IMG/VR virus record: IMGVR_UViG_3300025769_000096
Span: 1-64,000 of that record
From: a virus
Reading direction: 5' to 3' (one strand)
DNA: 64,000 nt
Below are positions 6,037 through 9,009 of this stretch, in pieces. A model generated the notes under the pieces. The model ran no database searches and had not been told where the DNA came from. It worked only from the letters and a program-made list of their open reading frames with translations. The stretch's first letter is position 1; every line of letters begins with the position of its first letter. A program made the position numbers and the translations under genes.

Positions 6037-6066
6037 CACACTACTGGAACACTTTAAGGGGCTCAG
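6037..6066 (-). promoter_or_regulatory. GAGCC box 7, carrying a stop codon
   Basis: Minus strand CTGAGCCCCTTAAAGTGT then TCCAGTAGTGTGAG. The TGA (6065-6063) is the dam stop codon. A GGAGCA/TGCTCC hairpin (6021-6035) lies in the 5' leader between the box and the CAAD gene. Confidence 0.85.
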
Positions 6067-6881
6067 TAGACAGCAATCAATTCATTTGCTTTCTTTCTAC
6101 TTCCACCATTTGCTGCAATAGTTCTAGACACTTGAATTGGATAGATTGTGGCATTTTTGTATAGTTCTCTGGTGATGGAAACGTCATTATTAGATACAAT
6201 CACTTTAATACCCTTTGCAGCAAGAGATTCTGCAAGTTGTGCTAGTTTAACCTGCTGGTCTGATGTAAACCCATCAGTCGCATAGCTTGTGAAGTTTGAT
6301 GTATCAGATGCAGGAACATATGGTGGGTCAAAATAGACAACATCACCTGCTTCCAAATCTTCATAAAGAGATAAATCTTCAAATGAAAGTGATGTGAACC
6401 GCACCAATTGTTTGGTGAGGAAATACATCCTAAATTTCATCATCTCTTCAGATGGACAAGTTGGTTTTTCATATTTACCAAAAGGAACATTAAATCCACC
6501 ATTTTTATTGTATCTTGACAGTCCATTAAAGCAGTGGCGATTCAAATAGATGAATAGTCTTGCCCTTTCTTTAGAATCTGTTGATTGATTGAAGTGTTCT
6601 CTCAAATCAAGATATGACTCTTTAGTATTATTCTCTGGAATGAACAGTTCTTTACAATACTGAATAAAACTATCCTCATTTGGATCTAACAAATTCTGAT
6701 AAATTGCCACCAAATCTTTATTCACATCATTGAGAATATACTGCTCTGCTGATGTGTTCAGTGCAACAGCAAGGCTCCCACCAAAGGGTTCACAATAACG
6801 CTTTGGACTACCAATATGGGGAGTAAGATGGGGAAGGACTCTATATTTGTTTCCTGCCCACTTTAGAAAGGGTTTATGCAT
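6063..6881 (-). CDS. dam: DNA adenine methylase, Dam type
   Basis: A complete 272-aa D12-class N6-adenine methyltransferase, close to E. coli Dam (278 aa) in length. It has the opening FLKWAGNK (5-12), the AdoMet-binding EPFGGS (31-36), the Dam-typical segment HCFNGLSRYNKNGGFNVPFG (residues about 116-135), and catalytic DPPY at 185-188. GATC is the likely target by family. The ATG overlaps the end of the 467-aa gene by 8 nt, so the two are coupled, and the MutH-like gene lies one gene further upstream. The stop codon lies inside GAGCC box 7. Dam could protect phage GATC sites, or mark the new strand. Confidence 0.95.
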   Translation of the reverse strand: MHKPFLKWAGNKYRVLPHLTPHIGSPKRYCEPFGGSLAVALNTSAEQYILNDVNKDLVAIYQNLLDPNEDSFIQYCKELFIPENNTKESYLDLREHFNQSTDSKERARLFIYLNRHCFNGLSRYNKNGGFNVPFGKYEKPTCPSEEMMKFRMYFLTKQLVRFTSLSFEDLSLYEDLEAGDVVYFDPPYVPASDTSNFTSYATDGFTSDQQVKLAQLAESLAAKGIKVIVSNNDVSITRELYKNATIYPIQVSRTIAANGGSRKKANELIAVY

Positions 6882-8277
6882 ACAAATAATTTTTTAGAAT
6901 AACACGGAGTGTAGTATGTGTTCCTGTTTTCTTGATACTACCAAGTTTAATAAGATCACTAGCAGAAGAAAGATAACAATTTCTTGGATACTCAAACTCA
7001 TTAGTATTATCGCACCATTCATTCAAATCTTCAAGTGTAAAAGATTTTTTAAGTCCATTCTGCATAGCATAAATGAACACCAGACGCAGGAAATTCAGTT
7101 CCTTATACATGTGCTCATTTCTATTTTTAGAGCCCAAAATGTTAGCACCACCATTAACATAGATGTTATGGTCACAGACATCTGCATTTTTACCAGCATC
7201 TCTTTCAATGTAAAAGAGTTCCCACAAAATCCAATCAATGGCAGTCAATCGTAGTTTCCAAACATCTGCGGCACGATTACGAATCCAGGAAGAAAAATTC
7301 TTTTCTCCTTGCCAGTTGATTGTAGAACCATTGCGAACTTTGTTTCTACCAAACAATTTGTCTTGCCAATAATCTTCAACATTACTATCTTTGATGATTT
7401 TAATCTCAGAAATAAGTTGATTCAAAAACTGATTAAAATATGGTGCCTTACCATTCATATATGCTGCTGTCATGTCAACACAGAGAGCACGATAGATTTT
7501 GCTATACGTTGACCCGTTGTTGATAATTTGAGAAGTTATTGCAGGTACATTTTCAAAAACAGGTAGATATGGTTTCACGACATCTGTCATTGTATCTACA
7601 TCTTTAGGAACAGTATTATTGTCAATCAAACTGATAGGTCCGTCCATGTCATTTAGCAACCATGGAGTTAAATTTGATTGTCCAGTTGTTGCATTTAAGT
7701 AACCGAAACCATTCAGAACAGAGGTATAGTTATCGTTCTTAGATTTACCAGATGCAGTATGATCAATGGTACGATAAATTCGATTATATTCATCGTTGCT
7801 AGAAATTAGAACAATTTCATATCGAAGTGTTGATTCTGCCTCAGGAACACAATCTGAGAGAAGATAATCCTTTGGAATATCTAACTCACCATTAAGAAGT
7901 TTGCATAGGGTAACAATAAGAGTGTTACCATTCATCTGCTTAGGTGTCCATGCTTTAAAAGTATTGCCAAAATTATCTACAAAATCAGTGGTTGAAACCA
8001 CTATCATATTTTCACGATTTGCTGTGTCATGATTATAAAGAACATATCTTCCATTCTCATCTTTCTGTAAGAAGTAAGTTCGATAAACATCACCTTCTGC
8101 CCTGTCTTCGCTATTTCTTTGAAGTGAAACTGGGTCTAAAACTTTGCTGTAAGAAGTGCCTCTTTTCTCAACCAATCCATTATAGAAAGGGAGATTTACA
8201 TGGTTAGAGGATTCTCCATTTTCGTGTATTTGTTTTGCGAGCAGCACAATTTGCTCGATAAGAGTTTGAGTCAACAT
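6874..8277 (-). CDS. Unknown protein between MutH-like and Dam genes (467 aa)
   Basis: Large soluble protein with no family I recognise. The segment YNRIYRTIDHTASGKSKND (N-terminal half) resembles loosely the charged loops of ParB/DGQHR-type proteins, but not enough for a call. Many Trp/Tyr residues lie in the C-terminal half, which is probably helical. The start at 8277 is chosen for its GGAG ribosome binding site; the frame stays open to 8310. It has its own consensus sigma70 promoter and overlaps dam by 8 nt, which argues for a function linked to adenine methylation. A nuclease, specificity or regulator role are all open. Confidence 0.85.
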   Translation of the reverse strand: MLTQTLIEQIVLLAKQIHENGESSNHVNLPFYNGLVEKRGTSYSKVLDPVSLQRNSEDRAEGDVYRTYFLQKDENGRYVLYNHDTANRENMIVVSTTDFVDNFGNTFKAWTPKQMNGNTLIVTLCKLLNGELDIPKDYLLSDCVPEAESTLRYEIVLISSNDEYNRIYRTIDHTASGKSKNDNYTSVLNGFGYLNATTGQSNLTPWLLNDMDGPISLIDNNTVPKDVDTMTDVVKPYLPVFENVPAITSQIINNGSTYSKIYRALCVDMTAAYMNGKAPYFNQFLNQLISEIKIIKDSNVEDYWQDKLFGRNKVRNGSTINWQGEKNFSSWIRNRAADVWKLRLTAIDWILWELFYIERDAGKNADVCDHNIYVNGGANILGSKNRNEHMYKELNFLRLVFIYAMQNGLKKSFTLEDLNEWCDNTNEFEYPRNCYLSSASDLIKLGSIKKTGTHTTLRVILKNYLYA

Positions 8278-8344
8278 AGATTTTCTCCGTGTATAGATTT
8301 GGAGTGTCAAAACGGGTATAGATTTGTTTTGACTGAACTTATTT

Positions 8345-8373
8345 AGTATAAACTATTTTCAGTTAGTTGTCAA
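8345..8373 (-). promoter_or_regulatory. Sigma70-type promoter for the 467-aa gene and dam
   Basis: Minus strand TTGACA (8373-8368), 17-nt spacer, TATACT (8350-8345), starting 4 nt after the MutH-like stop codon. ACTAAATAAG, a late-promoter-like string, overlaps its 3' end, so the pair may be transcribed both early and late. Confidence 0.75.
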
Positions 8374-8376
8374 CTA

Positions 8377-8964
8377 TCAGAAAAGATTGCGTCCAAATTG
8401 ACCACAAAGATAAAATGCCATTCCCTTATCCTTAAGAGTCACACCTGCAAATTTCAGAGGAACATAGTGACCGTTGGTTTTAGATGCTTTGGTGCGAATC
8501 TGAAGCAATCCGTTAGGGCCAGTGATGGTATTCAATTCACTTTCCTCATCAAATGCCGTGCGAATATGGTTACAAATGAATTCGTAATCCTCTTTCAGTT
8601 CCCGATAGTGCTCAGAATGAGTTTCTGAATTTAGAAGTTCAGTTCCCACATAATCGTTGGTGCGAGTGAAACCAACGTAGATGGTCTGATTGAGTTTCTC
8701 AGCAACTTTACTTTCAGCGAAAGGAACATTATCCTCAATAATTTCGCTAAGGCAGTGCTTTAACTGTGTCACAGCAATAGATTCACCAACCGTGAACGTC
8801 TTAAGTTCACCGTCCACAAGATCTTTGAGGTTGGAGCTGTTAGGAATGCCCAGAGCAGTTTCAATCAGTTGTCCGCGAGAACCTTTGTTCTTGCCAGGTT
8901 TGGCATATGCAGAGAAATCAGTTACTTTCAATTTAGCAAAAGTTTGAATAGTTGTGAGAGTCAT
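8377..8964 (-). CDS. MutH/Sau3AI-family endonuclease (195 aa)
   Basis: The protein aligns along its length with E. coli MutH as I remember that sequence. KGSRGQLIETALG (residues 27-39) corresponds to the MutH block with catalytic Glu56. Asp48 or Asp51 with ELK (53-55) corresponds to D70-E77-K79. SKVAEKL (85-91) covers the MutH Lys116 region. LKEDYEFI (123-130) and LLQIRTKA (153-160) match the C-terminal DNA-binding part, and AFYLCGQF the end. The loop before ELK is about 2 residues shorter than in MutH. By family it should nick or cut GATC depending on methylation. The ATG at 8964 is chosen because GAGCC box 8 occupies the upstream sequence. It is followed by the 467-aa gene and dam. Confidence 0.85.
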   Translation of the reverse strand: MTLTTIQTFAKLKVTDFSAYAKPGKNKGSRGQLIETALGIPNSSNLKDLVDGELKTFTVGESIAVTQLKHCLSEIIEDNVPFAESKVAEKLNQTIYVGFTRTNDYVGTELLNSETHSEHYRELKEDYEFICNHIRTAFDEESELNTITGPNGLLQIRTKASKTNGHYVPLKFAGVTLKDKGMAFYLCGQFGRNLF

Positions 8965-8978
8965 TGCAAGTTTGTTCC

Positions 8979-9009
8979 TTGTACTACTACAACACTTTAA
9001 GTGGCTCAG
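8979..9009 (-). promoter_or_regulatory. GAGCC box 8
   Basis: Minus strand CTGAGCCACTTAAAGTGT then TGTAGTAGTACAAGG; 15 nt upstream of the MutH-like start. Confidence 0.85.

What the first reader, a model, noticed from the sequence alone, without database searches (positions are those of the whole stretch)
6063..8964. MutH-like endonuclease, unknown 467-aa protein and Dam methylase as one phage module
Three consecutive genes: a 195-aa MutH/Sau3AI-family protein with the catalytic Glu and D..ELK residues, a 467-aa protein of unknown family, and a complete Dam (DPPY). The last two overlap and share a consensus sigma70 promoter that begins right after the MutH-like stop; the block lies between GAGCC boxes 8 and 7. 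Marine Synechococcus is not known to use a Dam-MutH mismatch system, so phage enzymes could (a) cut unmethylated host GATC while Dam protects phage DNA, (b) form a phage methyl-directed repair, or (c) be a phage-borne restriction-like weapon against co-infecting phages with the 467-aa protein as partner. GATC is not avoided here: I counted 12 in the first ~4.1 kb, about what base composition predicts.
Basis: partly seen in the sequence, partly recalled or inferred. Interest (0 to 1): 0.9.

Follow-up and report, generated by a model that had tools for sequence, protein, structure and literature searches.

The report
Swappable cyanophage GATC restriction-modification cassette
A virus of marine cyanobacteria carries what looks like a complete cut-and-protect DNA system (a MutH/Sau3AI-type cutter, a methylase that marks the same GATC site, and a third protein of unknown kind), whose parts are exchanged between related viruses, and the viruses with such a system that were examined are short of GATC sites in their own genomes.

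Summary
The three genes are real. The 195-aa protein has the MutH/Sau3AI fold (VIA-align Z 12.8 to MutH, 11.2 to Sau3AI). The 272-aa protein is Dam. The 467-aa protein (U467) matches nothing characterised. They form an exchangeable cassette of nuclease, third ('middle') protein and N6-adenine methylase. In related phages the nuclease is MutH-A, MutH-B or an unrelated PD-(D/E)XK-like protein, the methylase D12-Dam or PF05869, the middle protein one of three families or absent; all six nuclease x methylase pairings occur. L098 is a natural swap: flanks 93-97% identical to the window, but MutH+U467 replaced by another pair and Dam kept. In named cyanophages this Dam and a cassette nuclease occur in the same 64 records. 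Host stretches are GATC-rich; Dam is rare in the hosts' family. Best reading: a phage-borne type II-like restriction-modification cassette that cuts unmethylated host GATC, as proposed for chlorovirus enzymes. Mismatch repair is disfavoured. No activity was tested. The role of U467 is open.

The parts
8377..8964 (-). MutH/Sau3AI-fold endonuclease, 195 aa (MutH-A type, phrog_15364)
   Evidence: E35, D48, E53, K55 align with the MutH catalytic residues (roles recalled)
8345..8373 (-). sigma70-like promoter (TTGACA-17-TATACT) ahead of the 467-aa and dam genes; lies in a 37-bp island (8339-8375) kept in the swapped cassette L098
6874..8277 (-). 467-aa middle protein (U467, family U1), no significant match to Pfam, PHROGs, NCBIfam, PADLOC or PDB sequences
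   Evidence: nine IMG/VR contigs at 84-100%, two divergent full relatives at 35-36% and one partial one
6063..6881 (-). Dam-type GATC N6-adenine methylase, 272 aa
   Evidence: TIGR00571 268.5 bits (cut-off 114.85)
8991..9008 (-). upstream repeated box TGAGCCACTTAAAGTGTT bordering the cassette
6048..6065 (-). downstream repeated box TGAGCCCCTTAAAGTGTT bordering the cassette

Best explanation
The block is a phage-borne, exchangeable restriction-modification cassette directed at GATC that works like an orthodox type II system. Dam methylates phage GATC sites. The MutH/Sau3AI-fold nuclease cuts (or nicks) unmethylated GATC. Host DNA is GATC-rich and apparently unmethylated there, so during infection it is the main target: it is degraded, host transcription stops and nucleotides are freed, as proposed for chlorovirus restriction enzymes. 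The middle protein is an accessory factor, most likely a regulator of timing or a loader of the nuclease; the cassette exists without it in other phages. Shown by computation: fold, methylase family, cassette architecture, gene-precise swapping, co-occurrence, GATC depletion in carriers, GATC content of host stretches. Inferred: GATC cleavage, independence from MutL, host DNA as target, role of the middle protein. About 0.8 for a restriction-modification-type pair on GATC, about 0.55 for host DNA as the main target.
For: (1) MutH-like model (pLDDT 81) matches MutH (Foldseek E 1.5e-5; VIA-align Z 12.8) and the Sau3AI N-domain (Z 11.2). A family profile hits only MutH in the PDB (E 2.6e-5). (2) Dam: 7e-72 to E. 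coli Dam; N119, L121, R123, N125, N131, P133 and Y137 are identical in the alignment. (3) All six combinations of three nuclease types with two methylase types. (4) Natural swap window/L098. (5) Dam at E<=1e-20 in 64 Synechococcus/Cyanophage-named records; MutH-A in 25, the PD-(D/E)XK-like protein in 39 others. All 60 printed Dam rows are in that union; the other four were checked. About 463 T4-like cyanophage records exist by gp23. (6) GATC depletion in carriers, p=0.0002. PMC4687349 (abstract) reports own-site avoidance in prokaryotes for orthodox type II systems only. (7) S-RIM2 has a three-gene cassette with another first gene and another D12 methylase and avoids AATT (52/227=0.23). (8) Hosts: TIGR00571 dam in 0 of 10 genomes; in 201 genomes of the family, 3 over cut-off and 10 with any match; host GATC ratios 0.95-1.10.
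Against: No activity or methylation data. Of 131 nuclease ORFs in non-duplicate loci, 78 (71 MutH-A) show no methylase within 2.5 kb; in S-CAM7 Dam lies 32 kb away. Of 28 records searched for D12, 5 fragments (38-107 kb) had none and two of 129 and 146 kb only a weaker D12 type. All 10 non-carriers carry a weaker D12 methylase of unknown site. S-RIM2, a non-carrier, has GATC ratio 0.58, inside the carrier range. Restricted to close relatives (4 against 3) the difference is p=0.11. Records are not independent (64 records bear 14 phage names). GATC avoidance could come from a host GATC nuclease. The 163-aa protein is only weakly assigned as a nuclease (Pfam PDDEXK_11 E 0.0046, below cut-off), and in named phages only 37-48% of it is matched. 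Host GATC was measured only around psbA.
Confidence: 0.72

Rival explanations
1. Phage methyl-directed mismatch repair: Dam marks the parental strand, the MutH-like protein nicks the new strand, with host MutS and MutL.
For: The nuclease is closest to MutH in sequence; records are annotated MutH or 'methyl-directed repair DNA adenine methylase'.
Against: The MutH-like slot is taken by an unrelated PD-(D/E)XK-like protein beside the same Dam type (L098; ACG-2014b). Carriers deplete GATC, which such a repair needs. Host MutS and MutL were not searched for.
Confidence: 0.08
2. Superinfection weapon: the nuclease destroys unmethylated DNA of co-infecting phages while host DNA is secondary.
For: Same enzymes; cassette swapping between close relatives would suit competition. 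For giant viruses, methylases are suggested to act in interactions during co-infections (PMC7253447, passages).
Against: Ten non-carrier cyanophages show only mild GATC avoidance (median 0.87). In chloroviruses exclusion was tested and the restriction enzymes were not responsible (PMC7019647, passages).
Confidence: 0.15
3. Anti-restriction: Dam protects the phage from a host GATC restriction enzyme, the same enzyme drives GATC avoidance, and the nuclease has a separate function.
For: GATC avoidance in carriers has the same sign.
Against: Does not explain why each of the 64 named Dam records has one of two unrelated nuclease-like proteins or the gene-precise swapping. GATC is not avoided in eight host stretches, while hosts with an old GATC system would be expected to avoid it. 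A host GATC restriction enzyme was not searched for directly.
Confidence: 0.12

Closest known systems
E. coli / H. influenzae MutH
   Same: fold, catalytic E/D/ExK residues, GATC (by homology); (I/L)R(P/T)K motif kept
   Different: here beside Dam as a pair in the window and 14 other loci, replaceable by an unrelated protein, 195 aa; MutL dependence unknown
Sau3AI (type II, GATC)
   Same: MutH-related fold (Z 11.2 to the N-domain), same predicted site, restriction-type use
   Different: Sau3AI is a two-domain enzyme of about 490 aa and is partnered by a cytosine methylase (both recalled); here one domain and an N6-adenine methylase
Chlorovirus restriction-modification systems (e.g. CviJI)
   Same: lytic virus carries site-specific nucleases with adjacent methylases; thought to degrade host DNA (PMC7019647, passages)
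   Different: bacterial T4-like phage; MutH-type nuclease; a third gene; parts exchanged between relatives
Marseillevirus GATC restriction-modification (melbournevirus)
   Same: virus-encoded GATC system (PMC7253447, passages)
   Different: unrelated virus group; gene layout not compared
phrog_2558 / DUF6551 DGQH-motif, ParB-like phage proteins
   Same: occupy the third-gene slot in other cassettes (U3)
   Different: no detectable sequence relation to U467

Membership tests
MutH/Sau3AI nuclease superfamily | MutH-like PD-(D/E)XK fold | tested here: met
   VIA-align Z 12.8 MutH, 11.2 Sau3AI; Foldseek E 1.5e-5
MutH/Sau3AI nuclease superfamily | catalytic E, D, E/D-x-K | tested here: met
   E35, D48, E53, K55; E35, D48 and K55 invariant in 19 sequences, E53 becomes D in subtype B
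MutH mismatch-repair equivalog (NF003458) | score over the curated cut-off of 243 bits | tested here: not met
   36.3 bits, E 3e-9: homologous, not the equivalog
MutH mismatch-repair equivalog (NF003458) | activation by MutL | not testable with these tools
   needs an assay
Dam (TIGR00571) | score over the curated cut-off of 114.85 bits | tested here: met
   268.5 bits
Dam (TIGR00571) | GATC-reading residues | tested here: met
   seven residues identical to E. coli Dam; their role in reading GATC is recalled
Orthodox type II restriction-modification system | separate nuclease and methylase genes linked and co-occurring | tested here: met
   same 64 named records; methylase within 2.5 kb for 53 of 131 nuclease ORFs
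Orthodox type II restriction-modification system | own-site avoidance (common, not universal) | tested here: met
   carriers 0.56 against 0.87
Orthodox type II restriction-modification system | nuclease cuts unmethylated site by itself, methylase protects | not testable with these tools
   no assay
ParB/DGQH-motif proteins (for U467) | detectable homology to phrog_2558-type middle proteins | tested here: not met
   profile comparison at chance, with shallow alignments; an NGNT/DGQH resemblance is by eye only
Known defence-system proteins (PADLOC) | model match for nuclease or U467 | tested here: not met
   none at E 0.01; Dam matches orphan and type II methylase models

The most novel reading that the evidence does not exclude
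A three-component viral restriction-modification class: a controller slot (U467, U2 or the DGQH-motif protein) goes with freely exchangeable nuclease and methylase parts of one shared specificity and tells the nuclease when or on which DNA to act. T4-like cyanophages trade these parts gene by gene, with the 37-bp promoter after the nuclease, and in the window's own group the repeated boxes, as crossover points.
Probability: 0.3. Interest if true: 0.86.

Novelty: new variant of a known kind. Interest (0 to 1): 0.72.

Why it matters
How cyanophages, which lack T4-style modified cytosine (recalled), take apart host DNA without harming their own is, as far as I know, open. A GATC (or, in S-RIM2, AATT) cut-and-protect pair would be a direct answer and is testable in cultured phages (S-RIM8, S-IOM18, S-RIM50, S-RIM2). 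Own-site depletion also gives a sequence signature from which other phage cassettes and their sites could be predicted.

Tried and rejected
AlphaFold2 of U467 failed (pLDDT 32 with six close sequences); the model was not searched. Homology of the middle families U1, U2 and U3 was looked for because U467 'NGNT...LNGELDIP' resembles 'DGQH...LSGEELDIP'; hhalign and HMMER without filters (shuffles for one of the pairs) give chance level, so it is not claimed. No relative of U467 in genome contigs by two peptide patterns; none in 50,697 phage records at E 0.01. PDB sequence searches with U467, with the U3 profile and with the S-RIM2 179-aa protein gave nothing significant. VIA-align also lists MvaI, BcnI, HinP1I, PvuII and DpnI at Z 2.9-6.0; not taken as closer kin. 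Paper searches (10 of 10) listed no paper whose title or abstract start speaks of a cyanophage MutH or nuclease-Dam cassette; for 'cyanophage'+'MutH' 15 of 28 papers were listed, and the library holds open-licence papers only. PMC10665884 (passages) mentions a DNA adenine methylase in cyanophage S-CREM2 as a DNA-stability gene and has no 'MutH'. Mobile early-promoter stem-loops that shuffle T4 gene cassettes were considered for the boxes (recalled, not tested): in 33 sources scanned with up to 2 mismatches boxes appear in the window, L098, L072, L079, L084, L123 and L028 only, so they are not general cassette borders. MutH family PF02976 was not searched in host genomes.
Full report
WHAT IS THERE. 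The window is part of a 67.5-kb IMG/VR virus record; its relatives are T4-like cyanophages. On the minus strand lie a 195-aa MutH-like gene (8377-8964), a 467-aa gene (6874-8277) and a 272-aa Dam gene (6063-6881, overlapping the previous one by 8 nt), bordered by two of 16 copies of a TGAGCCNCTTAAAGTGTT box. An 11/12 sigma70-like match starts right after the MutH stop.

NUCLEASE. Pfam gives nothing significant (MvaI_BcnI E 0.056); PHROGs calls it phrog_15364, function unknown. NCBIfam MutH matches at E 3e-9, far below its equivalog cut-off. A 19-sequence family profile finds only three PDB sequences, all MutH. The predicted structure (pLDDT 81) has MutH as its only Foldseek matches at E<=0.001, and in VIA-align Z 12.8 (rmsd 3.9, 179 aligned) to MutH, 11.2 to the Sau3AI N-domain and 8.9 to the Sau3AI C-domain, against 6.0 for MvaI.

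METHYLASE. E. coli Dam at 7e-72, TIGR00571 268.5 bits. The stretch that reads GATC in E. coli Dam (role recalled) is identical at seven positions counted from the alignment.

MIDDLE PROTEIN. U467 has no match in Pfam, NCBIfam, PADLOC or the PDB and only noise in PHROGs, and none in 50,697 phage records. IMG/VR gave nine loci at 84-100%. Two full relatives, 35-36% identical, and one partial one appeared later.

CASSETTE. Scanning the loci shows a recurrent group of nuclease, third gene and methylase, often near a helicase gene and a DUF6267 gene. The order nuclease-middle-methylase holds in all 23 loci with a third gene counted except S-IOM18, where the U3 gene comes first, then Dam, then MutH; in S-RIM8, WH25-B, KBS-M-1A and ACG-2014b Dam precedes the nuclease. 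Nucleases: MutH-A (window), MutH-B (29-30% identical; NCBIfam MutH E 5e-6) and a 163-aa PD-(D/E)XK-like protein (weak Pfam match E 0.0046). Methylases: D12-Dam and PF05869 'Dam' (2.3e-17); once an N4/N6-type (my label, no family search). Third gene: U1 (U467 type), U2, U3 (phrog_2558; weak ParB-like and sub-threshold DUF6551 matches), or none. Among non-duplicate loci, 53 of 131 nuclease ORFs have a methylase within 2.5 kb and 78 do not (71 MutH-A, 6 PD-(D/E)XK-like, 1 MutH-B; the fused gene of L003 is not counted); many contigs are near-identical or end close by. All six nuclease x D12/PF05869 pairings are seen, some only once (MutH-A+PF05869 in L143). Free pairing is expected only if the parts share one specificity, which by Dam and MutH would be GATC (inference).

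NATURAL SWAP. L098 matches the window at 93-97% over the long flanking blocks. The blocks reach window position 8956 (third codon of the MutH-like gene) and resume at 6886, five bases before the Dam start. Between these, MutH-A+U1 is replaced by PD-(D/E)XK+U2, except for a 37-bp island (8375-8339, 97%) holding the promoter. L013 shares with the window's cassette only 8375-6876 (promoter+U467, 91.9%), flanked by the other nuclease and the other methylase. L011 shares 8376-5914 (82%) with MutH-B upstream. Exchange is thus precise to genes.

CO-OCCURRENCE. In named phage records, Dam at E<=1e-20 is in 48 Synechococcus- and 16 Cyanophage-named records (organism names below the ten listed were not seen). 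MutH-A is in 25 and the PD-(D/E)XK-like protein in 39 different ones, matched over 37-48% of its length. The 60 printed Dam rows are all in this union; the four others were checked one by one. About 463 T4-like cyanophage records exist by gp23 (378+61+24). The 64 records bear 14 phage names. Of 28 records behind nuclease loci, chosen mostly for length, 23 have a D12 methylase (20 of them the strong type, over 180 bits); the 5 without are fragments of 38-107 kb, and G011 (146 kb) and G012 (129 kb) have only the weaker type. All 12 records of 171 kb or more have a strong D12 or, in the MutH-B record G022, PF05869. S-CAM7 has Dam and MutH 32 kb apart. S-8S29 has Dam and MutH annotated as one 1479-nt gene.

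SITE AVOIDANCE. With expectation N(GAT)N(ATC)/N(AT), 13 carriers (window, six named, six IMG/VR; 40-64 kb each) have GATC ratios 0.19-0.76, median 0.56; 10 non-carriers 0.58-0.98, median 0.87; p=0.0002. Of the other 15 palindromes the lowest p is 0.008 (CATG), not significant after correction. Non-carriers lack MutH-like genes (0 of 10) and are not in the list, but all have at least one weaker D12 methylase, in S-PM2 and S-SSM2 one annotated 'Dam' between clamp-loader genes. The lowest ratios are S-RIM50 (other nuclease, 0.19) and S-RIM8 (MutH-A, 0.21), both Neptunevirus, so depletion goes with both nuclease types. A test among close relatives only (4 against 3) gives p=0.11. The outlier S-RIM2 (GATC 0.58) has its own three-gene group before the helicase (179 aa, U3-type 347 aa, D12 methylase) and alone avoids AATT (52/227=0.23; the other 16 stretches 0.69-0.99); the remaining sites are spread over the flanking contexts, so a longer site such as GAATTC is not the cause. 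Own-site avoidance in prokaryotes is reported for orthodox type II systems only (PMC4687349, abstract).

HOSTS. TIGR00571 dam has no match in 10 of 10 picocyanobacterial genomes, WH7803 among them. In 201 genomes of its family, 10 have a match and 3 are over cut-off; the control genome of Synechococcus elongatus, a more distant relative, has one. Completeness of these genomes is not told. Host stretches around psbA (10-21 kb, eight genomes) have GATC ratios 0.95-1.10 and 4.6-9.2 sites per kb.

MECHANISM. Chlorovirus reviewers hold that virus restriction enzymes degrade host chromatin, and report that these enzymes are not responsible for mutual exclusion (PMC7019647, passages). The same logic fits here: host GATC is dense and apparently unmarked, phage GATC is rare and presumably marked. 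Residual self-cutting of new, not yet methylated phage DNA would explain depletion despite Dam. Repair is disfavoured by nuclease replacement and by depletion. The role of the middle gene is open: dispensable across the group, at least three families with no detectable relation, one with a ParB-like signal. A control role is the guess.

VERDICT. Real, and more interesting than a MutH-Dam curiosity: a viral restriction-modification cassette of a known general kind in a host group where I found no report of one, with a new third component and gene-by-gene exchange. Activity is untested.

Noticed in passing
L260:2820-5370 (Synechococcus phage S-RIM2, KX349227): Another three-gene cassette (179-aa protein of phrog_2400 with a PD-(D/E)XK-like 'EPDGG..FEGKK' stretch by eye, U3-type protein, D12 methylase); this phage avoids AATT (0.23).
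   Followed up: partly
L155 (ACG-2014d, KJ019031 60001-110000): TCGA is absent (0 observed, 90 expected), which suggests another site-specific system; its genes were not looked for.
   Followed up: no
L159:38308-39438 (S-CAM7, MT586120): Gene annotated 'type-2 restriction enzyme CviJI', a chlorovirus-type enzyme, in a phage that also carries MutH-A and Dam.
   Followed up: no
L153 and L167 (S-PM2, S-SSM2), gp44/gp62 region: A second, weaker D12 'Dam' between clamp-loader genes. Each of the 10 non-carriers has at least one weaker D12 methylase; its place was not checked in the other eight.
   Followed up: partly
window 576-21711: Sixteen same-strand boxes TGAGCCNCTTAAAGTGTT (0.21 expected); also in L098 and a few related contigs, absent from 26 of 33 sources scanned.
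   Followed up: partly
L003:3113-4591 (S-8S29): Dam and MutH-like protein annotated as one 1479-nt reading frame, a natural fusion or a sequencing difference.
   Followed up: no
L097, L118, L121 and L125: A 303-aa protein (phrog_5778 in L097, unknown) or a relative sits next to the PD-(D/E)XK-like nuclease cassette.
   Followed up: no
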